A stretch of DNA of 64,000 nucleotides from Planctomycetota bacterium (GCA_029936315.1 JAPYTD010000014.1:1-64000), one strand, 5' to 3'. Positions 2,452 through 51,422 are shown, counted from the stretch's first letter. Made by a program: numbers and translations. The notes: a model not told the origin generated them from the letters alone.

Positions 2452-3324
2452 ATGCAACTCCAAGACGCCCTCGCGGCATTCCAAGTCCAGCTCCGCGCCG
2501 ATGGCCGCAGTGAGCACACCCGCAAGCAGTACGAACGACACGCCCGGTCGATGATCGCCTGGCTTGAGTACTCCGGCCAGCCAACCGAGATCGACGACGT
2601 CACGACGGGAGTCATCGCCGAGTTCTTCGCGAGCGACACTGCTAGGCTCAGCGCCCGCGGCGGCGAGAAGCGAGCAAGCTCCGCCAACGCCCAACGAACG
2701 AGCATCCGCTGCTTCCTCCGGTGGGCGCACGAGTCCGGCCTAGTGGCCTCCAACGCGGCACGCCTACTCCGCCGTGCTCGCTGCGCACCAGCGCCACCAA
2801 AGGCCCTTCACGGCGACGAGCAGAAACGCCTGCTCAAGGTCCTCGACGAAGCAACTGGCACCGGAGCGCCGCGCGACCACATGCTGGTGCAGATGCTGCT
2901 TCGCACCGGTATTCGCATCGGCAGCGCCCTCGCCCTGGACATCGAAGACGTCGACCTAGCGCATAGCGAGCTGACGCTGCGATCCACCAAGAACGACAAC
3001 CCCGCGACCGCTGTCATGCCGACCTCCCTGATAGCGGCACTGCGCGAGTTCCTGGGCGACCGCACAACCGGGCCAGTGTTCCTGGCCGGCACGCGCAGGA
3101 TCTCGATGCGCCACGCCCAGCGACGGATCAGCCACTGGCTGAACATGGCAAAGGTCAACGGGCGAAGCGTGCACAGCCTGCGCCATACATTCGCCTCCGA
3201 CTTGCTCACACGAACCGGCAATCTGAGGCTCGTCCAAGCCGCAATGAACCACCGGTCGGTAGTTTCCACAACGGTCTACGCGCAGGTCAGCCGGGATCGC
3301 CTGCGCGCAGCGGTTGGCGCCTGA
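2452..3324 (+). CDS. Tyrosine recombinase / XerC-D-like integrase
   Basis: N-terminal SAM-like core-binding region; catalytic motifs LLRTGIRIGSALAL, HSLRHTFASDLL and VVSTTVYAQVS. Confidence 0.85.
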   Translation: MQLQDALAAFQVQLRADGRSEHTRKQYERHARSMIAWLEYSGQPTEIDDVTTGVIAEFFASDTARLSARGGEKRASSANAQRTSIRCFLRWAHESGLVASNAARLLRRARCAPAPPKALHGDEQKRLLKVLDEATGTGAPRDHMLVQMLLRTGIRIGSALALDIEDVDLAHSELTLRSTKNDNPATAVMPTSLIAALREFLGDRTTGPVFLAGTRRISMRHAQRRISHWLNMAKVNGRSVHSLRHTFASDLLTRTGNLRLVQAAMNHRSVVSTTVYAQVSRDRLRAAVGA

Positions 3325-5608: not shown

Positions 5609-5836
5609 ATGTCAAATCCAACACCGCTGACAACGGGAACTGTCGCCAAGCTTCTCGAAACCACCGAACCTCGCGTCGCTGAGACAGTACGTCGCGGCAA
5701 GGTTGTTCCGCCGCCACCAGTGATCGCAGGACGCCGCCTCTGGTCTCCAAATCAGGTGCGCCAAGCAGCCGCAGCCCTCGGCCTACTCACTGAAGACCTC
5801 GACCAACTGCTCATCGGAGGACCAACCGATGAGTAA
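5609..5836 (+). CDS. Small MerR/excisionase-like HTH protein
   Basis: TTGTVAKLLETTEPRVAETVRRGKVVPPPPVIAGRRLWSPNQVRQAA; overlaps the start of the primase ORF. Confidence 0.6.
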   Translation: MSNPTPLTTGTVAKLLETTEPRVAETVRRGKVVPPPPVIAGRRLWSPNQVRQAAAALGLLTEDLDQLLIGGPTDE

Positions 5837-8234
5837 GCCATCACCGAAAGACGCGCCCTTCCCTGACCGGATCGAAGAGGCTCGCCGAGCAATCGACCGG
5901 CGGTGGGCATTGGCCAAGTTGACCGGCAAGAAGCCTGTCCACAAGGGCTGGCAGAAACGCGAAATTGACGACTTCAAGACGGTCACCAGCTGGATCAAGG
6001 CTGGCCACAACATTGGTCTCAGAACAGGTCAGGTTTCCGGGGTTGTCGTTGTCGACGACGACTCACACGACGGCGCAGCCGGCCAGGCGCTCAACCTGCC
6101 GCAGACCGTCACCGTCATCACTGGCAGCGGCAAGCGTCACTACTACTTCGCAGCCCCGCCGTTCAAGGTCGGCAACTCGGTGAAGACGCTGGCGGACGAT
6201 ATTGACATCCGGGGCGATGGCGGCCAAGTGGTGTTCGTTGGCTCGCTCCACTCCGACACCAAACAGCCTTATCGCTGGGCGCCCGGTTGTTCGCCAGACG
6301 AAGTCGAGTTAGCGCAGCTACCAGCATCGATCCTCGACGAGCTGCGACCGCCCGACAAGACCAAGCCAAGCCTGCGCTTGGTCGATCCGACGCGCACATC
6401 CAAGCGAACGGAGTCGCGCACCAAGTCGTATGCAGACGCTGCACTCGCCAACGAACTCGCAGAAGTGCACGGCAGTGCCGAAGGCAGCCGCAACGACACC
6501 TTGAACAAGAGTGCCTTCGCTTTGGGCCAACTCGTAGCAAGCGGTCACCTCGATCGAGACCACGTGGCAAATGAGCTACGCCAGGCCGCGGTGGTATCTG
6601 GGCTGAAGGACGCGGAAGCCAGCGCGACCATTGCTAGCGGCATGGCTGCTGGGGCCGAGTCGCCGCGAGACCTTTCGGGACTCGAAGAAGATCCTGACGA
6701 TCCTGACACCGACCCAGCTGGCCTCAACGAAGACAATCGACCAGTCATCAAGATATACGGCGGTTGGCTGCATCGCATCACATCCAAGGCGGAACGGATC
6801 CTGGCGCGACAGCGGCCACCAGTGCTCTACCAGCGTGGCACGGTGCTCGTGAAGCTATCGATGATCCAAGAGCCCGGGTTGGGTCTCACTATTCGACTAC
6901 GGCCCATGATCGTGGAGGTGACAATCCCGGGTGTCGTCGACAAGCTCACCGAGCTGATCCGATGGATTCGAATCGACGGCAGAAGCGGTGATGAAGTAAC
7001 GATCGACTGCCCTGAGCGAATCGCCAAGACGCTTCTCAGCCGAGCAGGATCTTGTCGACTCCCCCCGTTAGCCGGCGTCATTGATGCACCGACCCTTCGA
7101 AGTGACGGAGGTCTTCTGGACAAGGAAGGCTACGACGCATCCACGGGCCTTTTCCTAGCTCGCAGTAATGACAAGTTTCCTCAGCTACCTGAGTCGCCGA
7201 CGAAGCAACAGGTCCAGGACGCACTGGCGAAGATTCAGTGGATCCTGAAGGAGTTCCCGTTCGTCGCTGAGGAAGACCAGAGCGTCGCCATCGCAGCCAT
7301 CCTGACGGCTTTGATTCGACCATCGCTTCGGACCGCGCCGCTTATTGCGTTTCGGGCAGCCAAGATGGGTAGTGGCAAGTCGCTGCTCGCCGACGTCGTT
7401 GCACTCATAGCCACCGGCAGGCCGGCGGCCGTCATGTCGCAGGGCGCTGATGAGAACGAAGACAAGAAGCGCATGCTGCCCATCCTCGGCGAGGGCGAGC
7501 CCGTTGCTGTCATCGACAACATTGAACGTCCGTTTGGCAGTGCCGCGCTGTGCTCAATCCTGACGCAGCCGACGTGGCGCGACCGAGTGCTTGGCAAGTC
7601 GCAGACCATCAGCCTGCCAACAACTCAAACGACCTGGCTCGCGACTGGGAACAACATCCAGTTTGTCGGAGACATCACAACGCGAACGCTCGTGTGCGAC
7701 CTGGACCCGCGCGTCGAGCGACCCGAAGAGCGCCGGTTCGAAGTCAACCTGCACCACTACATCCCAGCCCACCGTGGGGAACTGGTTGTTGCCGGACTGA
7801 CTCTGTTACGCGCCTACCACGTCGCCGGCCGCCCAGACATGAAGCTCTCCGTGTTCGGCAGGTTCGAAGAATGGTCCAACTGGATCAGATCGACAATCGT
7901 CTGGTTGCGACTAGCAGATCCGTGCCAGACCCGGCACCGAGTCGAAGCGACGGATCCGATTCGCACACAGCTCACGGAGCTACTGACAGCACTGCAAAGC
8001 CACTTTGGCGAAGCTCGCTTCCCCGTGTCCAAGGTGATCACGGCGATGGCATCCAACACGACCTTGCAGGACGCCGTGAAGCCCATCATGGCGGTAACAT
8101 CCACCGGCCAGAGCCACGCACAGTGCCTCGGGCTGTTCTTCCAACGCGTCGATCGCAGGCCTGAGGGCGGGATCAGGCTAATTCGGTGCCAAAAGGCTGG
8201 CGGCGTCGCCACATGGAGGATCGAACGTGTCTAA
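5829..8234 (+). CDS. Bifunctional DNA primase/polymerase (prim-pol) N-terminal domain fused to an ATPase/helicase-like region
   Basis: Prim-pol-like GKKPVHKGWQ...NIGLRTGQVSGVVVVDDDSHDG...GSGKRHYYF...DIRGDGGQVVFVGS; downstream Walker A-like FRAAKMGSGKSLLADVV. Confidence 0.8.
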   Translation: MSKPSPKDAPFPDRIEEARRAIDRRWALAKLTGKKPVHKGWQKREIDDFKTVTSWIKAGHNIGLRTGQVSGVVVVDDDSHDGAAGQALNLPQTVTVITGSGKRHYYFAAPPFKVGNSVKTLADDIDIRGDGGQVVFVGSLHSDTKQPYRWAPGCSPDEVELAQLPASILDELRPPDKTKPSLRLVDPTRTSKRTESRTKSYADAALANELAEVHGSAEGSRNDTLNKSAFALGQLVASGHLDRDHVANELRQAAVVSGLKDAEASATIASGMAAGAESPRDLSGLEEDPDDPDTDPAGLNEDNRPVIKIYGGWLHRITSKAERILARQRPPVLYQRGTVLVKLSMIQEPGLGLTIRLRPMIVEVTIPGVVDKLTELIRWIRIDGRSGDEVTIDCPERIAKTLLSRAGSCRLPPLAGVIDAPTLRSDGGLLDKEGYDASTGLFLARSNDKFPQLPESPTKQQVQDALAKIQWILKEFPFVAEEDQSVAIAAILTALIRPSLRTAPLIAFRAAKMGSGKSLLADVVALIATGRPAAVMSQGADENEDKKRMLPILGEGEPVAVIDNIERPFGSAALCSILTQPTWRDRVLGKSQTISLPTTQTTWLATGNNIQFVGDITTRTLVCDLDPRVERPEERRFEVNLHHYIPAHRGELVVAGLTLLRAYHVAGRPDMKLSVFGRFEEWSNWIRSTIVWLRLADPCQTRHRVEATDPIRTQLTELLTALQSHFGEARFPVSKVITAMASNTTLQDAVKPIMAVTSTGQSHAQCLGLFFQRVDRRPEGGIRLIRCQKAGGVATWRIERV

Positions 8235-8589
8235 GCCACGCGCACAACAGGGGGACTTGGGGGACTTGGTGGACTTGGGGGACCCGATCGCGGACCAATT
8301 GTCAAACACGCGCAGTGTCGGAGAGTTGTTCGCCGAGATCGTTGCCGACTATTTCAGCGGTCGACACCTACCTGCAGCACTAAAATCGAAGCAGGACCAG
8401 CCATCCACCATTGGTTGCTGCCAAACAGTCGACGATCGGCACGTCAAAGTCCCCCAAGTCCACCAAGTCCCCCTACTGCGCCTTCGGTGGGACCGTACTC
8501 ACACATCGGAGACCGCTGAAGGCCGTGTCCGGCTGGGAGCTGAATCGGCTGAGCCAGAGCGTCAAAGCGACGGGACAGGGAGAAGCTGA
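8227..8589 (+). CDS. Hypothetical protein encoding a GDLGDLVDLGDP repeat segment
   Basis: ORF overlaps the primase 3' end; tandem 9-bp repeat translates to DLGDLVDLGD. It could be non-coding origin/regulatory DNA instead. Confidence 0.4.
   Translation: MSKPRAQQGDLGDLVDLGDPIADQLSNTRSVGELFAEIVADYFSGRHLPAALKSKQDQPSTIGCCQTVDDRHVKVPQVHQVPLLRLRWDRTHTSETAEGRVRLGAESAEPERQSDGTGRS
8250..8285 (+). repeat. 9-bp tandem repeat GGGGGACTT/GGTGGACTT (~4 units), left arm of a 25-bp inverted repeat
   Basis: GGGGGACTT GGGGGACTT GGTGGACTT GGGGGACCC read directly. Confidence 0.9.
8447..8473 (-). repeat. Inverted copy of the 9-bp tandem repeat (3 units)
   Basis: AAGTCCCCC AAGTCCACC AAGTCCCCC; reverse complement matches 8259-8283 over 25 bp. 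Confidence 0.9.
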
Positions 8590-8870: not shown

Positions 8871-9127
8871 GTTCCCTCCCGGCCATCAATGCCGCGCAGC
8901 TCACATCAACCCACAAAGTTGCACTGTTCGATGCCGATGTGCTGGCTGGCAGACTGTTCTGGTCCGTGCCCGAAACGGCGTTCATGTGCCGCCTAGGTGT
9001 TCGCACTGTGTGGCGGATGCTGGCAAACCCACGATCCGGCTTCCCCGAGCCTCGCAAGGTCGGCGGACGCACGCTCCTCGCTTCGGCAGAGGTCATGGCG
9101 TTCATGGAGGAAGACCTGGCGAAATGA
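8867..9127 (+). CDS. Small HTH / AlpA-like excisionase protein
   Basis: SVPETAFMCRLGVRTVWRMLANPRSGFPEPRKVGGRTLLASAEVMAFME; ATGA overlap with the integrase. Confidence 0.6.
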   Translation: MSSLPAINAAQLTSTHKVALFDADVLAGRLFWSVPETAFMCRLGVRTVWRMLANPRSGFPEPRKVGGRTLLASAEVMAFMEEDLAK

Positions 9128-10344
9128 AGAAGAGCGCGGACAACTCGTGGGTCGGCAACCCCTACAAGCGGCCGAACTCGCCCTACTGGCACATCGTGTT
9201 CGAGGACGCCAGCGGCATCGTGCGGCGCAAGTCGACCAAGACGAAGGACAAGAGGGTCGCGCAGGAACGGTTAGCTGAGACGCTCCACAACGTCGTGAAG
9301 ACCAAGCTCGGTCACGTCGATCGCTACGCCGAAGTCCGCAAAGTGCCAGTCGCTCGGTTGATCGAAGACCACCGCGACCACCTGGAGACCGAAGAGCGCG
9401 CACCGCGATACGTGAAGGGCACGATCCGCCAGCTACGTGACTTCGTTGCGTTCGCCAAGGTGACGACTCTGCCGTCCATCCAACGTCCTGACGTAGAACG
9501 CTTCCTGAGCGACGTGAGGCGCTGTAGAAGCGCCAAGACTCGCGACCACTACGCGGGCGCCCTTCGCAGCTTTGGGCGCTGGTTGGAGCGCACGGGCCGC
9601 TGGGAGCGCGACCCGTTCCATGGTGTCCGAGTGCGCACGCCAAAGCGCGACAAGCATCGCATCTTCAAGCGCGTCAGCTTCAGGTTCGAGGAAGCCGAAG
9701 AACTCGTCGAAGCAGCATGGGCGCGCCACGAGGCCGAGAAGCACCTCGCCGGCACTCCGAGGCAACAGTGCTACGCCAACGGCGAAGTCGTGCGCGATCG
9801 TCAGGTGCTCTACTGGTTCGTCCTGACTACGGCCTTCCGCGCCAACGAGTGCGGATCGATCCGTTGGGAAGACGTGACGCTTACCGGTGACAAACCATGC
9901 ATCCGCCTGGCCGGTCAGTTCACGAAGAACGGCGACGACGCGATGATCCCGTTGCAGGGCTTCGTGATCGAGGCACTGCGGGCCATGCGCACGCGGCGCA
10001 GCAAGACCCAGATGCTGCGCGACCAAGGGCCGGTGCTGGAGACTGACCACGTCTTCAAGATGCCGGACAAGGTGGCCAGGCTCGTTCGCAAGGACGCGGC
10101 GTTCGCTGGGCTGATCCCGCAGCGCAGCCCAACGAGCAGGCGAGTCGACTTCCATGCGTTGCGCAAGAGCTGCGCCCGCATCCTGATCGAGCTGAAGATC
10201 CATCCGAAGGTCATCCAACAGGTGCTGCGGCACTCGGATATCCGGCTGACGATGGATTTGTACGGCGAGCTGGGCGAGGACGACCTCTTCCGCGAGCTGC
10301 CGGGGACGTTCCCGGTGCCGAGGATGTTTGGCGAGACGGCTTAG
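9124..10344 (+). CDS. Tyrosine recombinase / phage-type integrase
   Basis: Within ORF 8794..10344; LTTAFRANECGSIRWEDV, FHALRKSCARILIE, VLRHSDIRLTMDLYGEL catalytic motifs. Confidence 0.85.
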   Translation: MKKSADNSWVGNPYKRPNSPYWHIVFEDASGIVRRKSTKTKDKRVAQERLAETLHNVVKTKLGHVDRYAEVRKVPVARLIEDHRDHLETEERAPRYVKGTIRQLRDFVAFAKVTTLPSIQRPDVERFLSDVRRCRSAKTRDHYAGALRSFGRWLERTGRWERDPFHGVRVRTPKRDKHRIFKRVSFRFEEAEELVEAAWARHEAEKHLAGTPRQQCYANGEVVRDRQVLYWFVLTTAFRANECGSIRWEDVTLTGDKPCIRLAGQFTKNGDDAMIPLQGFVIEALRAMRTRRSKTQMLRDQGPVLETDHVFKMPDKVARLVRKDAAFAGLIPQRSPTSRRVDFHALRKSCARILIELKIHPKVIQQVLRHSDIRLTMDLYGELGEDDLFRELPGTFPVPRMFGETA

Positions 10345-13485: not shown

Positions 13486-15654
13486 TTAACCACCAACGAC
13501 CGCTTCGGCAACATCCGACACGACGGCACCGAATGCGTTGCCAGCCGCTGGGTCCAATACCAAGGCCTGATTGTAGAAGCGCACACCAAGCAACACTGGC
13601 TGATACGGGATGGGTAGCGACCAAGTCGCATGCCCGCCCGAGCCAGCCAAAACCATGAGCCCGTCAAGCGAGGTGTGTAGCGAGCAGCCGGGCATACCGA
13701 CGCCGCTCAGTGAAGCACCCGCAATGATCGGGTTCCACCCCATCGCCATGATCGCAACGTTCGCCGGAACGGAGTCGAGATACACTTCGAGCGTCTTGCC
13801 TATTTGCGGCGTGTCTCGAGGGATCAGTTGGCACGTCGCCTGGCTACCACTGCAGCCCGATGCAAAGGTGACAAATGCACTCTCGCTTCCGATCAGCGCT
13901 GAGCTGTGAAACCAATCAGCGTCGATAGCCAAGTATGATGTCCCGGGGTCTAGTGCCGGCACTTGGCAGAGAGACCACGAAGTTGTTATCCCCCAGCAGA
14001 CAACCTCGCCGTCAGAGCGACGACCAAGTACGTGATAATCACCCGCCGCTACGTCGACATACACCACACCCCAAGGGAGCGCCGGAGGTTGCGGGTAGGT
14101 TGGTCCCCACGTCATGATCTGACCGTTGGTGAGAATGCCGGCGCCAATTGCTATTGCCGCATCTCCGTGGGCAAACTTCACGAACTTCTCACCAGGAGGC
14201 GGCAAGGGAATCACAACGTATGGTGACGATGTCACCGGCACCAAGACGCCATCCGACCGAAGCAACACGGTGACATACTCATCAGCATCCGCTGCCTCAT
14301 AGGTCGTATTTGGCGGAAGGGTCGGGATGTTGAGCACGTTTCCGAGTGGGTTCCCCCAAGTAACCGCTTGCCCATCCGAGCGGATGGCAACCGCATGTTG
14401 GAAGCCGGCAACAGCCGACTCATAGGTGAGCCCGCTGGGCAAAGCCGGCACGTTCAACTGCCCGTGCGAATTGTCGCCCCAAGCACGAATGGTCCCGTTG
14501 GAACAAGTGGCCACTGAGAACGTGAAGCCCGCCGATACACCCGTGTAGGTCACCCCTGTCGGTAGTGCTGGCACGTTCAACAATCCAAGTGCCTTGGATC
14601 CGAACGCCTGGATCGTTCCATCGTCGAGTAGACCGACGCAGTGAAACCATCCACAGTCGAAGTCAACATAGGTCCGCCCGCTCGGGAGGGGTGGCAGCTC
14701 ACCCTGGTAGGCGCCGTCGTCCCCCCAAGCCACGACCACGCCATCAGACCGAAGGGCTACGGAATGGATCCTGCCAGCCGCAAACTGGACATAGCTGGTC
14801 GTCGGAGGCAGAACAGGGACGTTGCACTGGCCTAAGCTGTTGTCGCCCCACGCCACCAACACCCCATCTGAACGGAGAGCCAGTGTGTGCTCACCGCACG
14901 CGATCTCGACATACGTTACTCCGGCCGGCAGCGGCAGAGCGTTGCATTGGCCGACGTTGTTGGCCCCCCAGCACACTAGCTGACCATCCGATCTGAGCCC
15001 CACCGTGTGCGCAAAGCCAGCCTTGAGATGGATCCACTGCACACCGGCTGGCAGCGCCGGGATGTTGGTCTGCCCATAGTTGTTGACCCCCCAGACACGC
15101 GCCGACCCATCAGAGACAAGCGCGACTCCGTGACCACTACCGACCGAAACGGATACGTAGGTCACTCCCCCCGTCAACACAGGCACGTTCGTGCTAATCG
15201 GCCAGCCCCAGGCCTGGATCGTTCCATCGGACAACAACACGGCGGCGAAAACCTGACCACACGAAACATCAACAGGCTGCACGCCTGCTGGGATGTTTGG
15301 CAATGGGAACATCGTTGTCGCGCCGGGGTAATCTCCCCACTGCACCAACGAGCCATCCGAGACTATGCCCACCGAAACATCACCAAGATCGGCCTTCACG
15401 AAGAACAGTCCCGGAGCAAGCACGGGTGGATCCAGGTGCACCGGTGATGATTTCCCCCGTAGGAATACGCGACCATCCACGCGCCGAACCAAGGTGATAT
15501 CATCATGAGCATCAACCTGCACAATCGGCGCCAGCATGGCTGCGGTGTCGAATGTTCCGACACCCCAACCTCGAATGGTTGATGGTGGCGCCTGGGCTAG
15601 AACGGAATTGGCAACTAGAAGGACTCCCAAGCCAAATCGATGTGAAGGACTCAT
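13486..15654 (-). CDS. Secreted RCC1-like repeat protein (paralog of 10427..12586)
   Basis: ORF 13486..16053; signal peptide MSPSHRFGLGVLLVANSVLAQA places the start at 15654. RCC1-like repeats and the same C-terminal domain ending VVSDVAEAVVGG. Confidence 0.8.
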   Translation of the reverse strand: MSPSHRFGLGVLLVANSVLAQAPPSTIRGWGVGTFDTAAMLAPIVQVDAHDDITLVRRVDGRVFLRGKSSPVHLDPPVLAPGLFFVKADLGDVSVGIVSDGSLVQWGDYPGATTMFPLPNIPAGVQPVDVSCGQVFAAVLLSDGTIQAWGWPISTNVPVLTGGVTYVSVSVGSGHGVALVSDGSARVWGVNNYGQTNIPALPAGVQWIHLKAGFAHTVGLRSDGQLVCWGANNVGQCNALPLPAGVTYVEIACGEHTLALRSDGVLVAWGDNSLGQCNVPVLPPTTSYVQFAAGRIHSVALRSDGVVVAWGDDGAYQGELPPLPSGRTYVDFDCGWFHCVGLLDDGTIQAFGSKALGLLNVPALPTGVTYTGVSAGFTFSVATCSNGTIRAWGDNSHGQLNVPALPSGLTYESAVAGFQHAVAIRSDGQAVTWGNPLGNVLNIPTLPPNTTYEAADADEYVTVLLRSDGVLVPVTSSPYVVIPLPPPGEKFVKFAHGDAAIAIGAGILTNGQIMTWGPTYPQPPALPWGVVYVDVAAGDYHVLGRRSDGEVVCWGITTSWSLCQVPALDPGTSYLAIDADWFHSSALIGSESAFVTFASGCSGSQATCQLIPRDTPQIGKTLEVYLDSVPANVAIMAMGWNPIIAGASLSGVGMPGCSLHTSLDGLMVLAGSGGHATWSLPIPYQPVLLGVRFYNQALVLDPAAGNAFGAVVSDVAEAVVGG

Positions 15655-15710
15655 TAGCAAACTCAATGGCCGACCATCATGGCCGGCTACCAGCCCAATT
15701 GACGTTACCG

Positions 15711-15850
15711 CACAGGTTTTCGCCCTGCAACCACCCCGAATCGCTGTGCCAGATCGTGCCACGTTGTGCCCGAACCCATTGCACACTCGCACCCCCCCAA
15801 CTCTCAAAACCGCCCCTAGACCCCTAGAACCGCGTCCAAAGGCGACGCCT
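15711..15850. repeat. Dispersed intergenic repeat family, copy A
   Basis: CAGGTTTTCGCCCTGCAACCACCCCGAATCGCTGTGCCAGATCGTGCCACGTTGTGCCCGAACCCATTGCACACTCGCAC...CTCAAAACCGCCCCTAGACCCCTAGAA; 3 phased GTGCC units. Confidence 0.85.
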
Positions 15851-15919
15851 TTGCCCGACAACATACTGCGGGCCAGAGTGCGTGCCGAATGTTGAAGCAA
15901 GCGTTGTAGGATTAGGCAT

Positions 15920-17701
15920 ATGCACAGGATATCAGTCGTGGGGTGGTGCGTGGTCGCGATGCTGCAGATCTCTGCCGTTGGCCGTGCGCAGCAAGAGGGC
16001 GAAGTCAAGCTGGAGCTGCTGCGTACGCTCTCGGTCGATGGCGGTGCGATCACGGCGGCAGCGTTTGCTCACGATGGCAAGGCATTGGCTACGGCGAACT
16101 TCCTCGGCGAACTTCGCGTTCTCGACATGCCGGTGCAAACCGTGCGCTGGCGCGCGCAGCCGAGTGACCATTGGGTTGGCTACCTCGAGTTCTCAGCCGA
16201 TGGCACGCGATTGGCGTGCTGCGGCCGTCACCTGACCGTTCACGATGCACTCACCGGCAAGGTGCTGTTTCGAAGCGAGCATGCGGGGCCGTCCGGCTTT
16301 GCATGGCATCCGGATGGCAAGCGCTTTGCCTATGCGAATGGCACGGCGGTGTACTTGTCTGGCAACAAGATGGACGTGCCGTGGGCATCGTTCGAATACC
16401 CAGCCCGTCATTTGAGTTTCGCGGACGATGAGTCGCTATTTGTCGGCGACAACGTCGGCCGTCTTTGGCACGTGGCGGTCGGGAGTCGGATCACGGAGTT
16501 GCGGCATGACCCTCGCGAGCATGGCTACCGAGGTGCCAGTTCGCTTGCAGTTGTGTGTGCTGGCGGCAAGGTCTTCGATCTCGCATCGAAGTGCGCGCTG
16601 CGCTGCGATGACGCGGTGATCGACTATCCCGGAGAATACGGCCCGTTGGCGGTGACTAAGGACGCGCGTAGCTTTGCCGCCGGAAGCAGCAACAAGCTCG
16701 TTCGATGGTGGACGGAATCTGGCGACACGTTTCGCGACGTTAAATTGGATGATCATGTGCGCGCACTCGCGTTCCATCCCGATGGCGAGACGCTCTTCAT
16801 CTCGACGCGCGCGGGTAGCCCCGCGCTCTATGCAGCAGACAAGCAACCGATCGCCGTGGCCACAATGCATGCGCGACTCAAGGAGCTGAGGATGAGCCCG
16901 GATGGAACGATCTTGGCATTGAAGACCAGCGGCTGGGCGTTGTACGCAACTGCAGGCGGTGCACCGAAGCAGCTTCCGAATGCACAGTACGTGACGCCCG
17001 GAAGGCGCGGTTCTGAACTACTCGTGCAAGAGCGGGAGCGGCTGGTCGTTCTCGAGGCGCGGAGCAACACCGAATTGGCCGTGCTCCCGTCGAAGTCTTA
17101 CCTCAATGAGAACGGTGGCACTGGGCCGGGTGACCTACTGCTGGTCGGCGACGCACTCGTCGACATCAAGGGCGAGAAGGTCACGGAAATGCCCGACGAC
17201 GTGTTGATGCACCTCTACGCGACGGTTGCACATGCCAGCGATGGTAGCTGGGCGGTCGGTGGTGGTTCCGGCTTCGAAGGCGATCTCGGCGGTCTCGTGG
17301 TGACCGACAAGCACGGCAAACTTCGCGGCTTCCTCGATGATGGCCCGGTCTACACGCTGGCGTTCTCACCGGACAGCACCCGCATATACTACGGTTGCGG
17401 CACCGGTACTTCGTCAGGCATGGGCCCGACGGGAAGCTCGTTCCGCGTGATCGATGCGCGCACCCTCAAGCGCATCGACGAGAAGAACGCCAATGTGTCG
17501 CAATGGACGTTCTTGGATGAGAAACGCGCACTCGTCTGCTCGGAAGGCAAGCTGCAAGTCTGGGACGTCGGGACCCTGCAGGTTGTGCAGACAGTGCCGC
17601 TCGATGTGCCATGCCATGGCTTCGAACTGTCAGAGGATCGACGGACGTTTGTGTTGGGGCGGCGGGATGGGGTTCGGGTGTATCGGTTGCACAGCAACTA
17701 G
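15920..17701 (+). CDS. Secreted WD40-like beta-propeller protein
   Basis: Signal peptide; repeated AAFAHDGKALATA / LEFSADGTRLACC / LAFHPDGETLFIS blocks. Confidence 0.7.
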   Translation: MHRISVVGWCVVAMLQISAVGRAQQEGEVKLELLRTLSVDGGAITAAAFAHDGKALATANFLGELRVLDMPVQTVRWRAQPSDHWVGYLEFSADGTRLACCGRHLTVHDALTGKVLFRSEHAGPSGFAWHPDGKRFAYANGTAVYLSGNKMDVPWASFEYPARHLSFADDESLFVGDNVGRLWHVAVGSRITELRHDPREHGYRGASSLAVVCAGGKVFDLASKCALRCDDAVIDYPGEYGPLAVTKDARSFAAGSSNKLVRWWTESGDTFRDVKLDDHVRALAFHPDGETLFISTRAGSPALYAADKQPIAVATMHARLKELRMSPDGTILALKTSGWALYATAGGAPKQLPNAQYVTPGRRGSELLVQERERLVVLEARSNTELAVLPSKSYLNENGGTGPGDLLLVGDALVDIKGEKVTEMPDDVLMHLYATVAHASDGSWAVGGGSGFEGDLGGLVVTDKHGKLRGFLDDGPVYTLAFSPDSTRIYYGCGTGTSSGMGPTGSSFRVIDARTLKRIDEKNANVSQWTFLDEKRALVCSEGKLQVWDVGTLQVVQTVPLDVPCHGFELSEDRRTFVLGRRDGVRVYRLHSN

Positions 17702-17751
17702 ACGCCGCAAACGGCCAGTCGATGCCAATGGTCGCGATGGGCTGTAGCGCG

Positions 17752-17885
17752 TCACGCCGAGGCCGAGCTTTCTGCGGATTGCAAGAGGTAGCAGCCTGGC
17801 ATGCCGACGCCTCCGGGTGAGACAGGCCGCGAGAAGGGGCCGAAGAAGTCGTCATTCCAGCCGAGTGCGACGCCGTATCCACGCG
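17752..17885 (-). pseudogene. Remnant of the C-terminal GWN/GMPGC domain seen in the RCC1-like proteins
   Basis: Minus-strand translation GYGVALGWNDDFFGPFSRPVSPGGVGMPGCYLLQ matches the IMAMGWNPIIAGASLSGVGMPGCSL block of 13486..15654; no intact gene around it. Confidence 0.55.
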
Positions 17886-17899
17886 CTCGGCGGCGGCAC

Positions 17900-18111
17900 T
17901 GCGCAGCCAGAATCACAATGGGTATTGAGCTAGGACCTGCACGCTTTTCCTGTGGCAGGCCCACTCTTGTGCCACTCCAGTGCCCTCCCAACCGTGCCAG
18001 ACAGTGCCAGATCGTGCCACGTTGTGCCCGAACCCATTGCACACTCCATTGCACACTCGCACCGCCTGACTCTCAAAACCGCCCCTAGACCCCTAGAAAC
18101 GCCTCTAAAGG
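17900..18111. repeat. Dispersed intergenic repeat family, copy B
   Basis: GTGCC starts at 17994, 18004, 18014, 18024 (10-bp steps); two ATTGCACACT; CTCAAAACCGCCCCTAGACCCCTAGAAACGCCTCTAAAGG tail. Confidence 0.85.
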
Positions 18112-18187
18112 TGGTATGTCTGCGCTCGAATCGCCTCCATTCGGGGCCGGACACTGGGCGACTCGGTGGTGCGAACGATTGAGGTGT

Positions 18188-19906
18188 TCAGTTCAGCACA
18201 ATGTCACGGGTAGTTCCCGCTCGCAGTTGGAACGGCTCACTGCTCCGGTCCGCCAGCCAGACTGTGCCCTTTGCGCTAACGGGTGGCCTGAGAAATACCG
18301 GCACTTCGATGCGGCCGTCGCCATCGCTGCGCACCAATCGCAAGAAGTGCCCCAGCATCGTGCTCGACTGCCGCGCCCATTGGGTATCTAGATCCTTGCC
18401 GTCCACCCCCGGAAGGACGGTGCTGTGCGCCTTGATGCGCGCACCAACGACCGGCTTGCCGTCTTGGTCAACCACCCGAATCGCCATCGTCTCAACAGGT
18501 TCTAGGCACAGCTTGACGGGTCCCACCGTGTCCTTGTCGATCATCGCCAACGCATGACTTTGCCCGGCAACGGCGTAGACGAAGAAGGACCCCACGCCGA
18601 GATACAAATACGCATGGCCCGACAAGTCCGTGGCCAATGTTGCTTCACAGCTCACGGGGACACCCCTTCTTGGACGACCGACCAACAAGGTCGACGGTGC
18701 CGGGCTACCATCGACACTGGTAACGGCAATGACGACGCGAGGCATCGCGTCGAGATCGACAACAACCGGCGAAGTCGGCGCTATGATATTCGCAGTCAGA
18801 ACCGCAGTCGGCCACTTCGCTGCCATCCGCACACACGGCTTGAGGTTGCTACGCAGGCCATGCACCACCCAGTTGTTCTTGTACTTTCGGGTAGTGACTA
18901 GCGCGCGCGGAACATGCCTGAACGAACCGACCCCCGCTACGTACGCGTCGTCGGCGCCGTCTCCCCGCACAGTAACCTGCAGTAGTTCATCCTTGTCGAG
19001 GAGAACTTCGCTTGTTGCAGCCGCTCCCAAGACCCCTGCGCCTTGCTGGAAGCCCTCTGCGTCGACACAAACCAACAGCGTTTGCTGGTAGTCGCCAAAC
19101 CGTCGCTTGACGACATGCTGTTCGGGTGCATGGAAACGGACCTCGCCTGCTTCATTGGTCTTGCCTACTGCACGAAGGTGTGGCAACGGTATCGTCGTGG
19201 GGCTGACAAGAAGGCGCGACCGGCCGAGCGTGCTTATGCCATAGGACACAGTCGCATTGGCCACCGCCTTGCGATCCATGCCTCGAACTGTGACGGTCCT
19301 CGATGTAGGTTTCGGCAGCGCCCGTACGTCAGTGGATCCTGGCAACAAGGTCGCGCACACCATCACTTCGCCATTTGCATCCGTAACCGCTATGGTGCCA
19401 AGACACCAAGGCGTCGCCGGGACGGCGACGCGATTGCCATCATCGGGCATGACGGAGTCGACGCCAACGCATTCACCCAGGTCAGGATACCAGCGCACTC
19501 CAGTCGCCCCGACCTCACGCCATGCTACGAGCCCAGGCACTTCGACGACGCGCGGCCCATGCTTGTCAAGCGCCTGCATCTCAACGACACGACCAGCCGC
19601 TACATAGTTATGCGATGCAGTCACCCAATGCTCGCCAGCCTGCGTAGCACTACTGACGGCCCATGCGACATACACGCGCCCGACGGCCAGGTTGCATTGT
19701 GCCCGCCCTCGCGCGTCGGTCCGTGCAACGACGACATCTTCCGACCACGGGGCAATCGGAGTCGGTGGCGAACTGCAGGTCACTTCGGCGTTGGCCAATG
19801 GCTTTCCGTCAGGCCCCGTCACGGTCGCAAACAACGGGCTTCGCTGCTGTGCCGTGCCGAGACCAGCCAGCAATAGAACCCCTAGCAGGATGTGTCGATG
19901 CCCCAT
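18188..19906 (-). CDS. Secreted protein with carboxypeptidase-regulatory-like / Ig-like modules
   Basis: Signal peptide MGHRHILLGVLLLAGLGTAQQ; VTGPDGKPLANAEVTC and VDQDGKPVVGARIKA motifs. Confidence 0.65.
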   Translation of the reverse strand: MGHRHILLGVLLLAGLGTAQQRSPLFATVTGPDGKPLANAEVTCSSPPTPIAPWSEDVVVARTDARGRAQCNLAVGRVYVAWAVSSATQAGEHWVTASHNYVAAGRVVEMQALDKHGPRVVEVPGLVAWREVGATGVRWYPDLGECVGVDSVMPDDGNRVAVPATPWCLGTIAVTDANGEVMVCATLLPGSTDVRALPKPTSRTVTVRGMDRKAVANATVSYGISTLGRSRLLVSPTTIPLPHLRAVGKTNEAGEVRFHAPEQHVVKRRFGDYQQTLLVCVDAEGFQQGAGVLGAAATSEVLLDKDELLQVTVRGDGADDAYVAGVGSFRHVPRALVTTRKYKNNWVVHGLRSNLKPCVRMAAKWPTAVLTANIIAPTSPVVVDLDAMPRVVIAVTSVDGSPAPSTLLVGRPRRGVPVSCEATLATDLSGHAYLYLGVGSFFVYAVAGQSHALAMIDKDTVGPVKLCLEPVETMAIRVVDQDGKPVVGARIKAHSTVLPGVDGKDLDTQWARQSSTMLGHFLRLVRSDGDGRIEVPVFLRPPVSAKGTVWLADRSSEPFQLRAGTTRDIVLN

Positions 19907-20046
19907 GCTCAGATGCTAGCAGCCGATAAGCGAGCCACAGTAGGGCGATCATCAGGACAAGCCGGGCAGTGCCTGGCAGGAGCGGGGCGACGGGGTAACC
20001 GCCCAACACGAGCAACCTCGTGTCCGCGCATCGTCCGACCGCATCC

Positions 20047-20110
20047 GCCAACCCCCCGAGTGCAGGTTTTCGCCCTGCAACCACCCCTTCTCGCTGTGCC
20101 AGTGCCTGGC
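20047..20110. repeat. Dispersed repeat family, partial copy D (hairpin module)
   Basis: TGCAGGTTTTCGCCCTGCAACCACCCCTTCTCGCTGTGCCAG. Confidence 0.7.
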
Positions 20111-20154
20111 GCCTGCGACTAGGGCTGCCTTGACGATCGCTTCGAGAACCAGCT

Positions 20155-21312
20155 TTGGAGGATCGAAGCCTAGCGCCGATGATGTGCTCGATGACCGCCC
20201 GACCTCGGCAAAGATGGATCGCGACGCTTCTGTGGACCGTTTCGATCACTTTGGCCGTTGTCGCCATCCAGTGGTCACCGACTCAAGGCCCCACGCGATT
20301 CGACGCGGTCGTGGTGGCTGCAAAAACTCGCGCCAAGACGCAAGCCGGCAACCGAGCCGCGGCCTGGGGCGAGACTCGCGAGGGATCCGCGTTTGCGTGC
20401 TACCTGGCCGCCACGGCTGCATTGCCGGAGGATCTCTACGCAATAGGTTTGACGCGCGAGCAACTGACGGACATGAGCTGGGCGCTGAGAGACGGCAGAA
20501 TCTGCAAACTCCGATTGTCATGGCAAACCGCGCTACAACTCGTGGGCGACGGTGCACACAGCCTCGATGCGATGCCACATTCGCAAAGGGCCATCCGATG
20601 GACCGATCTATCGTCAGTCCTCCGATACGAGGTCGCATTGCGACTGCACGAACAGCGATGGGACGAAGCGGTTGAGCTGTGGATCGACTCCTGCACTTTT
20701 CAACTCGATCACGGACGTTGGATCGACTTCGACGCCTGGCCCGACGACCACCTCCGCGGACTCGATCGCGGAGCCTACCAGAAGCTCGCCACTGGACTGA
20801 GCAGGCTGGATATTCGGCTTCGACTCCCAACTGACTTCAGAGGGTTGCTCGCTGTGAACGCACTCGAAATGCTCGAAGGTCGCCTACCGACCGAGTGGGA
20901 TTGGGGCCAAATAGTCGAAGCGTGGGAGTGGGGGTTCGACCCGGCGGCAAGGCACCTGGCAGATTTCGACGAGTTACTTGAGCAAGCCGCTGCTCTTGAG
21001 CCAACCGCAGCAACCGGCTTGGCACGCGAGGCTCAGTGGCGATCATTTTCCCGCGCGACCTCTTTCTGCGCTGGCGGCTACGCGGGCATTGTTGGGCGAC
21101 TGGCGAGGAGGAAGGAGAAGACCACGCGACAGACCCTGACTGGGGTGCGGCTTATTCAGTTAGCACTCGCGTTCCATCAGAGGGTGACACTCCCAAATCT
21201 GATCGACCCATTTACTGGCGACCCCATCCGAATCATGCTCGATGGAGACTCAGCGAGTTTCTGCGGCACAGAAGGTAATCCGCCGCTAATGCGGAGCGCG
21301 GAACGCCAGTAG
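20155..21312 (+). CDS. Hypothetical membrane-anchored protein
   Basis: 385-aa ORF with N-terminal TM RWIATLLWTVSITLAVVAIQW; start uncertain. Confidence 0.5.
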   Translation: MEDRSLAPMMCSMTARPRQRWIATLLWTVSITLAVVAIQWSPTQGPTRFDAVVVAAKTRAKTQAGNRAAAWGETREGSAFACYLAATAALPEDLYAIGLTREQLTDMSWALRDGRICKLRLSWQTALQLVGDGAHSLDAMPHSQRAIRWTDLSSVLRYEVALRLHEQRWDEAVELWIDSCTFQLDHGRWIDFDAWPDDHLRGLDRGAYQKLATGLSRLDIRLRLPTDFRGLLAVNALEMLEGRLPTEWDWGQIVEAWEWGFDPAARHLADFDELLEQAAALEPTAATGLAREAQWRSFSRATSFCAGGYAGIVGRLARRKEKTTRQTLTGVRLIQLALAFHQRVTLPNLIDPFTGDPIRIMLDGDSASFCGTEGNPPLMRSAERQ

Positions 21313-21491
21313 CTCCGACAGGCGGCAACGGCTGCTAGAGCGCAAGCGCGGACTCAACGAGAACTAGCCAGCGCACTGTCACTGCGCGGCACCTCGCAGT
21401 TCGGACGGCTTAGGCTCCAAACTGGCCCACACACGCCAACGTCGGCGGCCACGTTGCCCGCCAAATCGCCACACCCGAGTACACCAGACCG

Positions 21492-21550
21492 CCAACACCC
21501 CGATTGCAGGTTTACCCCCTGTAACCACCCCGAATCGCTGTGCCAGGCCG
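21492..21550. repeat. Dispersed repeat family, partial copy E (hairpin module)
   Basis: TTGCAGGTTTACCCCCTGTAACCACCCCGAATCGCTGTGCCAG. Confidence 0.7.
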
Positions 21551-21806
21551 CATGGGCGTGGATGAACACAAGAGACTCCCTCCGTTGTTGCGATTCGGCT
21601 GCACTCCCAACGACAAACGCCACGGACCCGGTGCCCGCCGAGCCCACCGACATCCATGGCGACGTCAATCGGATTGGCCAGAAACGGGGGTGGCAACGTA
21701 GGCGACGACGTTGCGCAGTAACGCTTGCCCGTGCAACGATCTGGCTCGCGACACGGCGTTCGGCGCAATCCAGCGAGACGTGCTGCAAGTGACTGCGCAC
21801 CTGGCG

Positions 21807-22721
21807 CTACTTACTCGATTCCAGCTTCGGGGTTGGTAGCTTTATCTTGACCACCTCAGCGAAGCGAAGCCAAACCACGACCACCGCTTCGTTCTTTGGC
21901 GCATCCTTCATAACCCGCGCGCGCACGAGCACGCCAGAACCTGCAACGAGAGGCATCGTGCACGAAAGCAACGGGTTGGTTGGCAGAAGGGTGAGGTCTT
22001 TAGGCAGCTCGGCGGCGAGTTGCACGGCAAAGATGGCTTGGTCGTCCTCCAGCAATGCGGCCTCACCCCGCAGCCGCACCGGCTGAGCAGTTGGCGTGCC
22101 AACCGGCTTCTTGTCGTCTGACTTGTCGCTCCCCGACGTTCGGCCAGCCGAGGCGCGCTCGATGCGAAACGGCACAAGCGGAACAGCCAGGACCTCGGGG
22201 AGGTTGTGCAGAGTGCCCTTCGCAGCGACGGCTGCCTTGATCACCTTGCCCGCGCGCACTTGATTGGCTGGCAGCGCGCGGCCGACGAGCAATCCGTGGT
22301 CGTTGGCGACCGCCTTGGACATGCGCACCAGGGTGCACTGCAAACGAAGTTGGCGTGCTGCCGGTTTGCGGAGTTGCTCCACCATCGAATCCATCAAATC
22401 AAGGTGTTCCCTATCGCCGGATACCAACATGGAGTCCGTCGGTTCGTGGTGCTTGAACACGGCCTTGCGGCGACGGCCCCGCTGATTGGGCAACGGATTG
22501 ACAAGGCGCTGCTGCCGAAGCAATTCCCGGCTGTGCGCAGTTACCAGGCGTGCCAGCCGAGCGATCGGGCCGACATTCCCTGCCACATCGGTGCCCGCCT
22601 GATCCATGGCATCCGCGATGTCTCGCAGTTTGATCACGGCAGTCCTCTGCGCGCTAGCCCCAGCACTCAGGTACAGACTGGCTAGCAGCAACAGACACCT
22701 CATTGGCTTCACGTTTTGCAT
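21807..22721 (-). CDS. Hypothetical secreted protein
   Basis: 304-aa ORF with signal peptide MRCLLLLASLYLSAGASAQ. Confidence 0.55.
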   Translation of the reverse strand: MQNVKPMRCLLLLASLYLSAGASAQRTAVIKLRDIADAMDQAGTDVAGNVGPIARLARLVTAHSRELLRQQRLVNPLPNQRGRRRKAVFKHHEPTDSMLVSGDREHLDLMDSMVEQLRKPAARQLRLQCTLVRMSKAVANDHGLLVGRALPANQVRAGKVIKAAVAAKGTLHNLPEVLAVPLVPFRIERASAGRTSGSDKSDDKKPVGTPTAQPVRLRGEAALLEDDQAIFAVQLAAELPKDLTLLPTNPLLSCTMPLVAGSGVLVRARVMKDAPKNEAVVVVWLRFAEVVKIKLPTPKLESSK

Positions 22722-22939
22722 GACGAACTGACCCTCGATGGACGTCGCGAGTTCGACTTGGCGTCGAGCTTACTATTCCCTATCGCCAGAACTATCGCGC
22801 TCATGACGGCTCCTAGAATCACGGGCTCGCATCAGGACGACAAGTCGAATGAACCACGTGAAACTGGCGGCAGAGGGCACCGCTCTAAGAGCTGAGCCAC
22901 CACCGGCCACGCCAGACGCGCCAACACCGCCCGCCTCAG

Positions 22940-23136
22940 CGCGGCCAGAATCATGACCGGCGATGAGTCGGACCTGCAGTTTTCGCCCTGCAACCACGCC
23001 GAATCGCTGTGCCAGGTTGTGCCACCTAGTGCCAGGCTGTGCCACGTTGTGCCCGAACCCATTGCACACTCCATTGCACACTCGCACCCCCCAACTCTCA
23101 AAACCGCCCCTAGACCCCTAGAAACGCCTCTAAAGG
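22940..23136. repeat. Dispersed intergenic repeat family, copy C, abutting the tRNA 3' end
   Basis: GTGCC starts at 23009, 23019, 23029, 23039, 23049; two ATTGCACACT; same tail as copy B ending CTCTAAAGG. Confidence 0.85.
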
Positions 23137-23139
23137 GAA

Positions 23140-23213
23140 TAGGCCCTGCAGGACTCGAACCTGCAACCGAGTGTGTATGAGACACCAGCTCTAACCAATT
23201 GAGCTAAAGGCCC
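23140..23213 (-). tRNA. tRNA with CAT anticodon, probably tRNA-Ile2 (lysidine type)
   Basis: GGGCCTT TA GCTC AATTGGTTA GAGC T GGTGT CTCATAC ACACT CGGTT GCAGG TTCGAGT CCTGC AGGGCCT A; overall pattern resembles bacterial Ile2(CAU) tRNAs. No encoded CCA. Confidence 0.85.
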
Positions 23214-23234: not shown

Positions 23235-24251
23235 ATGCCAGCGGCGGAAAGTATGACCAAGCTCGACCATCGGATTCTTGTTCCTCGACTGCGGGCACTT
23301 CAGGTTGAGATTCGCACGGCCTTGCGCGGGCATATGCAGACGCAGGCGGTCGAGGCCCTGGCGCGGGCGGTGCGGGACGATGAGGGGGATACGATCTTTG
23401 GGATCGATGTCGAAGTGGAGGAGATGCTGCTTCGCTACTGCGAACGGTGGGGGGAGGAACAGCACTTCACCTTGGTTGGCGAAGGGTTACCGACGGCTGG
23501 CGTGGAATTTGGGCGGGCGGGGCTCGGGGGGCCGCCGTTTCGGTTGCTGGTGGATCCGATCGATGGCACGCGCGGGCTGATGTTCGATAAGCGCAGTGGC
23601 TGGTGCTTGATGGGGTGTGCGCCGGATCGTGGTGACGATACCAAGCTGCAGGATGTTGAGGTGGCGGTGATGACGGAGCTGCCTACGACTCGGCAGAACA
23701 TCAGTGATGTGGTCTGGGCGGTGGCGGGACAACCGGCACAGGCAGAACGGCACGACGTGGTTCGCGATACGCAGACGCCGTTGCCGATCGTTCCGAGCAC
23801 GGCGAAGGACTTGAAGCATGGCTTTGCTTCGGTGGCGAACTTCTTTCCCGGTGGCAAGACGCTGATTGCCGAACTCGATGAAGCGATCCTGAATCGGGCG
23901 ATGGGCGGTTGGAATCCGGAGAAGGCTGAGGTCTATAGCGATCAATACATCAGCACGGGCGGGCAACTTGCTGAGGTGATGCTGGGGCGCGATCGCTTTG
24001 TGCTCGATGTGCGGCCGATCGTCTACCAGAAGATGGGGGTCAAGTCGGCGTTGGCTTGTCGACCGTACGACCTGTCGACGTGGCTGGTTGGACAACAAGC
24101 TGGTTGCGTGGTCTGCGATCCGTTTGGACAACCGCTTGATGCGCCGCTCGATGTCACCACGAACATGTCGTTCGCTTTCTATGCGAACCAAGAACTTGCG
24201 GATCTGCTGATCCCGATCGTGCGGGAAGAAGTAACGCGGATTCTCTGCTAG
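23235..24251 (+). CDS. Inositol monophosphatase-family protein
   Basis: LLVDPIDGTRGLM metal-binding motif and upstream FGIDVEVEEMLLRY. Confidence 0.75.
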   Translation: MPAAESMTKLDHRILVPRLRALQVEIRTALRGHMQTQAVEALARAVRDDEGDTIFGIDVEVEEMLLRYCERWGEEQHFTLVGEGLPTAGVEFGRAGLGGPPFRLLVDPIDGTRGLMFDKRSGWCLMGCAPDRGDDTKLQDVEVAVMTELPTTRQNISDVVWAVAGQPAQAERHDVVRDTQTPLPIVPSTAKDLKHGFASVANFFPGGKTLIAELDEAILNRAMGGWNPEKAEVYSDQYISTGGQLAEVMLGRDRFVLDVRPIVYQKMGVKSALACRPYDLSTWLVGQQAGCVVCDPFGQPLDAPLDVTTNMSFAFYANQELADLLIPIVREEVTRILC

Positions 24252-44442: not shown

Positions 44443-45363
44443 ATGGTGCGCATTGCAGCGGACATATCCTGGCTCGTCGGACACACGCCATTGGTCGATC
44501 TTGCCCGACTGTCGCCTTCGGGCACACGCCTTGTCGGCAAGCTCGAGGCGTGGAGCCCATCCGGCAGCAACAAAGACCGCGCGGCGCTCGGCATGATCCG
44601 GCACGCCGAGCAGAGTGGTTTCCTCAAGCCAGGCGGCGTAATTGTAGAGTGCAGTAGTGGCGACCTCGGCTTGGCGATCGCGGCAATTGGTCGGCGCCTG
44701 GGCTACCGGGTGATGCTGACGATGCCCGATAGCGTCACGTCGGATCGGCGCAGCCTGTTGATGGCGCTCGGGGCAGAAGTCGTAACCACGAGCAGCGACC
44801 AGGGCATGAAAGGCGCGATGGCGCGCGCAGAACAGCTAACCAAGGCGACCGACGGGGCAATCTGCCTGCAGGCGTTTACCAACCGTGCGAATGCGCGCGC
44901 ACACGCTGAGACCACGGCTCGCGAGATCTGGGAGGACACCGACGGGCAGGTCGACGCCGTAGTCGTTCCGGTCGGCACAGGTGGCACCGCGGCGGGTTGC
45001 GCTGAGTTCTTTGCCTCGCGCGGCGTCAAGGTTGTCGCCGTGCAACCAGCCGGCAGTGCGGTTCTGACTGGTGGCACAGCGGGCCCCCACAACATCCCGG
45101 GCCTTGGCGCTGGCTTCATCCCTGACATCTTGTCGCCGTCAAAGCTCGACGAAGTGGTTAGCGTTACCGACGATGAGGCTCGCCGATGCAATCAACGTTT
45201 GATGCGCGAAGAATCGCTGCTGCTCGGACCGGCGAGCGGCGCAGTTGTGAGTGCCGCAATCTCGTTGGCGGAACGCGATGAGTTTGACGGCAAGATGATC
45301 GTTGCTGTGCTGCCCGATGCAGCAGAACGCAACCTCGACCACTGGATGCAAGAGACGCTGTGA
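44443..45363 (+). CDS. PLP-dependent cysteine-synthase-family protein
   Basis: HTPLVDLARLSPSG...KLEAWSPSGSNKDRAALGMI; CVVVPVGTGGTAAG-like PVGTGGTAAG; variant PLP motif ECSSGDLG. Confidence 0.8.
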   Translation: MVRIAADISWLVGHTPLVDLARLSPSGTRLVGKLEAWSPSGSNKDRAALGMIRHAEQSGFLKPGGVIVECSSGDLGLAIAAIGRRLGYRVMLTMPDSVTSDRRSLLMALGAEVVTTSSDQGMKGAMARAEQLTKATDGAICLQAFTNRANARAHAETTAREIWEDTDGQVDAVVVPVGTGGTAAGCAEFFASRGVKVVAVQPAGSAVLTGGTAGPHNIPGLGAGFIPDILSPSKLDEVVSVTDDEARRCNQRLMREESLLLGPASGAVVSAAISLAERDEFDGKMIVAVLPDAAERNLDHWMQETL

Positions 45364-50491: not shown

Positions 50492-50614
50492 GCTTTATCC
50501 CAAGTAGAGATCGGCATTCCGAGCAGTCGCAGTGAAGACGGGGTTGGTCTTTCAGGGGGCATCCCGAGGTCCCGCATGCTTGCATTGGTGCTGTTGGCCA
50601 ATGCTATGGGCGAA

Positions 50615-51034: not shown

Positions 51035-51422
51035 TGTTTACCTTTCTGTGTTGAGAGAAGCACCGGTAGTGCCAAGTGGTGTTGCAAACCTAAACACTCG
51101 ATGACAACGAGGGCGGTCAGGTGAACGCGTTCGTATGCTCGCGAACGTCGTGCGTATGCGACGGTTCCCCGTCGCAACGAACAGACTTCCGCCGCAAAGT
51201 CGCGACGGTTGCCAGTGTGTGATTTGGCCCAATGCGACGATTGGCCCAGGGGGTGACTTGCTCGTGGCACGCTCAGTGGTGCGCGATTAGTAGCGACGCA
51301 ATGGTCGCCGACAATGCGTTCACTCTGCGATTGGCCACAAGCTAGCGCAGTAGGCGGCGCTCGCTTTGGTCACCTTTGGGAGATCAACACGATCCCCCGT
51401 GCTCGCTTTGGTAACTGGAGGA

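What the first reader, a model, noticed from the sequence alone, without database searches (positions are those of the whole stretch)
15711..23136. Dispersed intergenic repeat with helically phased GTGCCA iterons in variable number
Copies A (15711), B (17900) and C (22940) share a ~140-200-bp body. Within it GTGCC(A/C) recurs every exactly 10 bp: 3 units in A (15746/56/66), 4 in B (17994/18004/14/24) and 5 in C (23009/19/29/39/49). A second module ATTGCACACT occurs once in A and twice, 12 bp apart, in B and C. One-helical-turn phasing with varying copy number suggests a protein-binding array. All three end with CTCAAAACCGCCCCTAGACCCCTAGAA. No known family is recognised.
Basis: partly seen in the sequence, partly recalled or inferred. 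Interest (0 to 1): 0.75.

Follow-up and report, generated by a model that had tools for sequence, protein, structure and literature searches.

The report
Mobile-island attachment arms beside a tRNA
The repeated 10-base-phased sequence is best read as the docking site for a DNA-cutting-and-joining enzyme (integrase) that lets mobile gene cassettes insert next to one particular tRNA gene in a family of Planctomycetota bacteria; the principle is known, but I found no description of this family of sites, its varied repeat 'words' or its integrase-less cassettes.

Summary
In detail: copies A, B and C, with 3, 4 and 5 GTGCC units exactly 10 bp apart and an ATTGCACACT element (once in A, as a 12-bp-spaced pair in B and C), are real and far beyond chance.

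Other contigs show the whole site: iteron arm, a 20-bp copy of the tRNA 3' end, second iteron arm, i.e. a complete attP. The core copies the host's own tRNA variant. A tyrosine integrase in the window (about 9124-10344) has 62-72% identical relatives placed in the order integrase, arm, tRNA. I conclude that the repeats are attachment-site arms (arm-type integrase-binding sites) of tRNA-targeted genomic islands; A and B are probably older arms displaced by accretion of small cassettes. The CTCAAAACC...CTAGAA block is probably the tRNA terminator hairpin. Integrase-less cassettes with a predicted ShosTA defence system lie between such arms in two genomes. Binding and recombination were not tested. 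New variant of a known kind.

The parts
15711..15842 (+). Copy A: arm with 3 iterons (15746/56/66), one TTGCACACT, and an altered hairpin block; displaced arm without a core
17898..18115 (+). Copy B: arm with 4 phased iterons (17994-18028), TTGCACACT pair (18037, 18049), hairpin block to GGTGGTA; core lost
20061..20112 (+). Partial copy: T-arm-like box plus first GTGCC only
21431..21547 (+). Partial copy: extended left flank, box and first GTGCC only
22972..23139 (+). Copy C: arm in place at the tRNA: core-like box, 5 iterons (23009-23053), TTGCACACT pair (23062, 23074), hairpin block
23097..23136 (-). Hairpin block CTCAAAACC...CTAAAGG; folds on the tRNA strand as a stem-loop (z -2.65, 2 of 200 shuffles as good); probable tRNA terminator
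   Evidence: function inferred
23139..23158 (.). Core: TAGGCCCTGCAGGACTCGAA = 3' end of the tRNA (plus its last base), from the T-loop to the end; the same 20 bp recur between two arms in contigs C112 and C99
23140..23213 (-). tRNA with anticodon CAT (ARAGORN: tRNA-Met; could be tRNA-Ile2), the integration target
9124..10344 (+). Tyrosine integrase (open frame from 8794); relatives adjoin the arm and tRNA in other genomes; R-K-HxxR-H-Y motif present; N-terminal beta-beta-alpha domain in the model
2452..3324 (+). Second tyrosine recombinase; relatives lie about 5-6 kb upstream of the integrase in G015, G018 and G025
5829..8234 (+). Prim-Pol protein, probable replication/mobility gene of the same island module (inferred from position)
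15920..17701 (+). Cargo between A and B: WD40-repeat protein
18188..19906 (-). Cargo after B: weak carboxypeptidase-regulatory/Ig-like match
20155..21312 (+). Cargo between the partial copies: no Pfam match
21807..22721 (-). Cargo next to copy C: no Pfam match
23235..24251 (+). Conserved flank gene (338 aa, inositol-phosphatase-like by eye), found in 33 of 34 family genomes and next to tRNA(CAT) in most; marks the non-island side

Best explanation
The repeats are arms of attachment sites. A tyrosine integrase recombines a 20-bp core identical to the 3' end of a tRNA(CAT) gene. Beside that core the element carries an array of 3-5 GTGCC units, one per helical turn, and usually a 12-bp-spaced TTGCACACT pair. 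The integrase's N-terminal domain (or the integrase plus a directionality factor) binds these on one face of the DNA and builds the recombination complex. The block nearest the tRNA is a terminator the element brings along, so the tRNA stays functional after integration. Copy C is the arm now joined to the tRNA. A, B and the partial copies are arms of earlier insertions, pushed outward as further cassettes entered at the same tRNA and then decayed. Shown: the sequence architecture, its conservation at the orthologous tRNA, complete arm-core-arm sites, core co-variation with the host tRNA, integrase adjacency, and a conserved versus a variable flank. Inferred: which protein binds the iterons, recombination activity, terminator function, and the accretion history of A and B.
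For: (1) Copy C ends at the tRNA 3' end. The module also abuts this tRNA in G001, G007, G015, G018, G021, G024 and G009, and a different tRNA, Arg(CCT), in G026. (2) Complete arm-core-arm sites occur in own contigs C112 and C99, in G015 and, with a decayed arm, in G012. (3) The core follows the host tRNA: CTGAGGGACTCGA in both G007's tRNA and its three distant half-sites, TGGGTCCTGCAGG in G015. (4) Relatives of the window integrase (62-72% identity) lie in the order integrase, arm, tRNA in G015 and G007, and integrase, arm, core in G012. More distant relatives end at tRNA(CAT), tRNA-Gly or a tmRNA-like 3' end (the tmRNA reading is by eye). (5) At the same tRNA, genomes without GTGCC carry other words in the same layout: 10-bp GGCCG arrays beside integrase relatives in G025 and G026, and GTTCGTCACC x4 in G013. 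(6) The flank on one side of the tRNA is syntenic; on the other only repeats are shared. (7) The integrase model matches full-length lambda integrase best (1z1b, E 4e-9) and has a beta-beta-alpha N-terminus.
Against: No binding or recombination data exist. In the window itself there is no distal tRNA fragment and no second-type arm, so no intact island can be delimited there. A and B lack a core, so their origin by accretion is inferred. The integrase lies 5.4 kb from the nearest arm in the window, not beside it. G001 has five arms but no relative of this integrase above the threshold; its assembly is fragmented and it has nine integrase-family matches. The structure model has low pTM (0.54) and TM-scores to solved structures are only about 0.3.
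Confidence: 0.88

Rival explanations
1. The iterons are bound mainly by an oligomerising recombination directionality factor or other accessory protein, not by the integrase; they are still part of att sites.
For: One-turn phasing suits head-to-tail winged-helix filaments; RdfS and BldC behave in this way (PMC11963761). Two unlike repeat types (GTGCC and TTGCACACT) suggest two binding proteins.
Against: No directionality factor gene was identified here. Integrase arm sites are commonly about 10-bp repeats on both arms (five IntS arm sites TGKTGGTATC in ICEMlSymR7A), which fits the arrays on both sides of the core.
Confidence: 0.25
2. The arms in the window are relics or a repeat family spread by homologous recombination and duplication, no longer used for integration.
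For: A and B lack cores, partial copies are truncated, and several half-sites elsewhere are degraded (C71, C95, C112 9614).
Against: Copy C keeps an intact 5-unit array, pair and core; C112 and C99 are intact on both sides; the flank beside C differs completely between two species of one genus.
Confidence: 0.3
3. The repeat is a transcribed regulatory RNA or a transcription-factor array controlling the neighbouring genes.
For: Copies A and B precede genes, and part of the unit folds.
Against: Neighbouring genes are on either strand; the constant neighbour is the tRNA 3' end; no Rfam match; iterons lie on both sides of a tRNA fragment elsewhere.
Confidence: 0.04
4. The array is a plasmid- or phage-type replication origin (Rep iterons).
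For: Phased direct repeats in variable number; a Prim-Pol gene in the island.
Against: Up to five copies in one stretch, several lying between cargo genes; consistent tie to tRNA 3' ends; no Rep gene recognised beside them.
Confidence: 0.02

Closest known systems
attP arm-type sites of lambda-type tyrosine integrases (lambda, ICEMlSymR7A IntS; PMC11963761)
   Same: About 10-bp repeats on both sides of a core, beside the integrase gene; an integrase with an N-terminal beta-beta-alpha domain ahead of core-binding and catalytic domains.
   Different: Longer and strictly 10-bp phased arrays (up to 5+4 units on one arm), repeated many times in one genome, plus a second 12-bp pair; the sequences are unrelated.
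tRNA/tmRNA genomic islands as mapped by Islander (PMC4383910)
   Same: Target is the tRNA 3' end from the T-loop; displaced 3' fragments; integrase next to the regenerated gene (met in G015).
   Different: Islander resolves tandems only where each island has its own integrase and fragment (4 arrays of three or more). Here several att-bounded segments lack an integrase.
CIMEs and accretion of integrative elements (PMC5704250)
   Same: Segments bounded by att sites without integration genes, stacked beside an integrase-bearing element.
   Different: Segments hold one or two genes (ShosTA cassette about 1.8 kb), recur in several genera with the same cargo, and form arrays of up to five arms.
Integron gene cassettes (own knowledge)
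   Same: Single-gene units in tandem, one orientation of sites, integrase possibly in trans.
   Different: No attC-like sites noticed; target is a tRNA; sites are arm arrays with a tRNA core; a lambda-like recombinase by fold.

Membership tests
Lambda-type tyrosine-integrase attachment sites | Core shared with the bacterial target | tested here: met
   20-bp core equals the tRNA 3' end and co-varies with the host tRNA
Lambda-type tyrosine-integrase attachment sites | Arm repeats on both sides of the core in attP | tested here: met
   C112, C99 and G015 C84
Lambda-type tyrosine-integrase attachment sites | Integrase gene adjacent to attP | tested here: met
   G015, G012, G007; not adjacent in the window
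Lambda-type tyrosine-integrase attachment sites | Integrase binds the arm repeats | not testable with these tools
   Model supports a possible arm-binding domain only
tRNA genomic island (Islander definition), the window stretch itself | Intact tRNA plus displaced fragment marking both ends, with an integrase between | tested here: not met
   No distal fragment in the window. Met in G015: fragment C84 about 5250, integrase 44461-45657, tRNA 46085
CIME (cis-mobilizable element) | att sites at both ends, no integration or transfer genes | tested here: inconclusive
   Met for ShosTA cassettes in G015 and G021; window segments have arms of one type only and no cores
CIME (cis-mobilizable element) | Mobilised together with an integrase-bearing neighbour | not testable with these tools
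   Needs excision or transfer assays
Integron cassette array | attC sites and IntI integrase | not tested
   No specific attC or IntI search was run; the integrase's best fold match is lambda integrase and the sites carry a tRNA core
Known structured RNA family | Rfam match at gathering score | tested here: not met
   Only tRNAs in the window

The most novel reading that the evidence does not exclude
A tRNA-anchored cassette system: many one- or two-gene cassettes without an integrase, each bounded by these arms, are inserted and shuffled at one tRNA by an integrase acting in trans, with the iteron 'word' switching between lineages (GTGCC, GGCCG, GTTCGTCACC) while the 10-bp layout is kept, so that arm and integrase co-evolve as matched codes.
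Probability: 0.3. Interest if true: 0.72.

Novelty: new variant of a known kind. Interest (0 to 1): 0.5.

Why it matters
It turns an anonymous repeat into a marker for the mobile gene pool of a little-studied Planctomycetota lineage, and gives a natural series of integrases with different arm words at one orthologous target, useful for asking how integrases choose their arm sites. It also shows small integrase-less defence cassettes (predicted ShosTA) sharing att sites with larger islands.

Tried and rejected
Rfam search: only tRNAs. Pattern scan of viral contigs: one locus, low module score, no iterons. Non-Planctomycetota hits of the genome scan scored low and lacked the iterons, except L167 and L151, short contigs ending at a tRNA and probably mis-binned. 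The integrase has no relative in phage records and only distant ones in plasmid records. The second-type arm (P') was looked for in the window and not found. PADLOC on window cargo: nothing. Higher ShosA than flank-gene identity between genera (83% vs 58%) suggests transfer but may reflect stronger conservation, so I did not lean on it. The idea that the box left of the iterons is a working second core is kept only as a note. Translated searches gave many weak, composition-driven hits in these GC-rich genomes and were ignored. Literature searches found no description of this site family, but only open-licence papers are searchable.

Full report
Observation. Three GTGCC units in 10-bp phase occur six times in the window and never in 100 shuffles. 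Two further partial copies lie at 20061 and 21505. Copy C runs directly into the 3' end of a tRNA gene with anticodon CAT, 23140-23213 on the minus strand. ARAGORN calls it tRNA-Met; by its sequence it could also be tRNA-Ile2 (own knowledge).

Spread. An 80-position sequence model of the module finds 13 copies in this genome and matches in 10 of the other 33 family genomes searched. Across 30 modules, 105 of 125 GTGYC spacings are exactly 10 bp, the TTGCAC pair is always 12 bp apart when both are present, and the distance from the last unit to the pair is 13, 23 or 33 bp in nearly all copies, again steps of one turn. A scan of 84,980 species genomes for the TTGCACACT pair returns Planctomycetota bins; hits elsewhere lack the iterons, apart from two short contigs ending at a tRNA that are probably mis-binned.

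What it is attached to. In G001, G007, G015, G018, G021, G024 and G009 the module abuts the same tRNA(CAT), in G026 a tRNA-Arg. A conserved gene on the other side of the tRNA marks the locus as orthologous in most of these (G007 is rearranged). Between this genome and G001 the sequence from copy C through the tRNA and beyond is 79% identical over 3.2 kb, whereas on the island side only the repeats themselves are shared. Two genomes of the same genus, G002 and G003, have the tRNA and gene but no module there.

The complete site. Contigs C112 and C99 carry arm, core, arm: five GTGCC units, the TTGCACACT pair, the hairpin block, then TAGGCCCTGCAGGACTCGAA (the tRNA 3' end from the T-loop), then 5 + 4 units and another pair. 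The same arrangement exists in G015 and in part in G012. The core copies each host's own tRNA: G007 has CTGAGGG in its tRNA and in three remote half-sites; G015 has TGGGTCC in both. A 20-bp match of this kind beside matched arrays on both sides is the hallmark of attP.

The enzyme. The genome has four tyrosine recombinases; two score as Xer-type proteins would and the other two are in the window. Relatives of the integrase at 9124-10344 are found in G012, G015, G007 and G018 (62-72% identity). In G015 the order is integrase 44461-45657, five units, pair, tRNA 46085; the far end of that island is the arm-core-arm site near 5250, giving an island of about 40 kb. G007 has the same order and G012 shows integrase, arm, core. 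The window integrase keeps the catalytic residues (alignment; reading from knowledge of the family). Its model has a beta-beta-alpha N-terminus followed by helical core-binding and catalytic domains, and its best fold match is full-length lambda integrase (low pTM, so support only). A second recombinase about 5-6 kb upstream of the integrase recurs in G015, G018 and G025.

Different words, same layout. At the same tRNA, other genomes carry 10-bp GGCCG arrays with a CAGTAC pair, with distant integrase relatives beside them in G025 and G026, or GTTCGTCACC x4 with a TTGCGCAC-like pair in G013. More distant integrase relatives end at a tRNA-Gly or at what reads as a tmRNA 3' end. This supports binding-site arrays that diverge with their integrase; the sample is small.

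Cassettes. G001 has five arms in one orientation over 12 kb from the tRNA, with one or two genes between them. In G015 and G021 a segment of about 1.8 kb holding predicted ShosA and ShosT genes (PADLOC, G015 copy; relatives by tblastn) lies between two arms without an integrase (the outer arm in G015 is weak, 17.8 bits); in G007 and G001 the same genes start about 100 bp after a second-type arm. In the window, single genes lie between A, B, the partial copies and C. The simplest history is repeated insertion at the tRNA, each event pushing older arms outward, followed by decay; this resembles accretion and CIMEs (PMC5704250). For A and B this is inference, since they have no core.

The conserved end block. 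CTCAAAACC...CTAAAGG folds as a hairpin on the tRNA strand in C and B (z about -2.7), and other genera have different hairpins in the same place, the strongest in G007 (z -3.4). I read it as the tRNA terminator carried by the element.

Limits. No binding, excision or transcription data. No intact island can be delimited in the window. Genome handles are draft assemblies, and contig ends hide the tRNA context of C112 and C99. Whether the iterons bind the integrase or a directionality factor is open.

Noticed in passing
window 8242-8304 and 8419-8483: Another 10-bp phased repeat (GGGGACTTGG) with an inverted copy about 115-165 bp away, between the Prim-Pol and integrase genes; possible origin or regulatory site of the island.
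   Followed up: partly
window 10427-12586 and 13486-15655: Two RCC1-repeat genes in opposite orientation that contain imperfect inverted repeats of each other.
   Followed up: no
L107 about 7472-7502; L110 about 5790-5830; L065 about 9900-9930: A second core-like box (for example GTAGGCTCTGCAGGATTC) lies just outside the iterons, so the arm is flanked by two tRNA-like cores; it resembles the host core in G012, G015 and G024.
   Followed up: partly
L061 9030 and 12548; L148 2670; L167 1437; L028 7556: Variant arms share a different right half (GGTCATCGACGAGTTCGCAGCGACCAATTCGC) instead of the hairpin block; target unknown.
   Followed up: no
L141 5480-6000 (G007 C63): In G007 the conserved flank gene is next to a second-type arm and core instead of the tRNA, as if site-specific recombination had rearranged the locus.
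   Followed up: partly
L067 9018-10241: The G007 integrase is cut at its N-terminus, followed by a transposase-like frame, probably an insertion sequence.
   Followed up: no
L206 12020-12250 (G013): A minisatellite of about 10-bp GCAGTTCGGC units, 5 kb from the tRNA.
   Followed up: no
window 50609-50908 and 51417-51716: Direct repeat of 300 bp at 76% identity, 808 bp apart.
   Followed up: no
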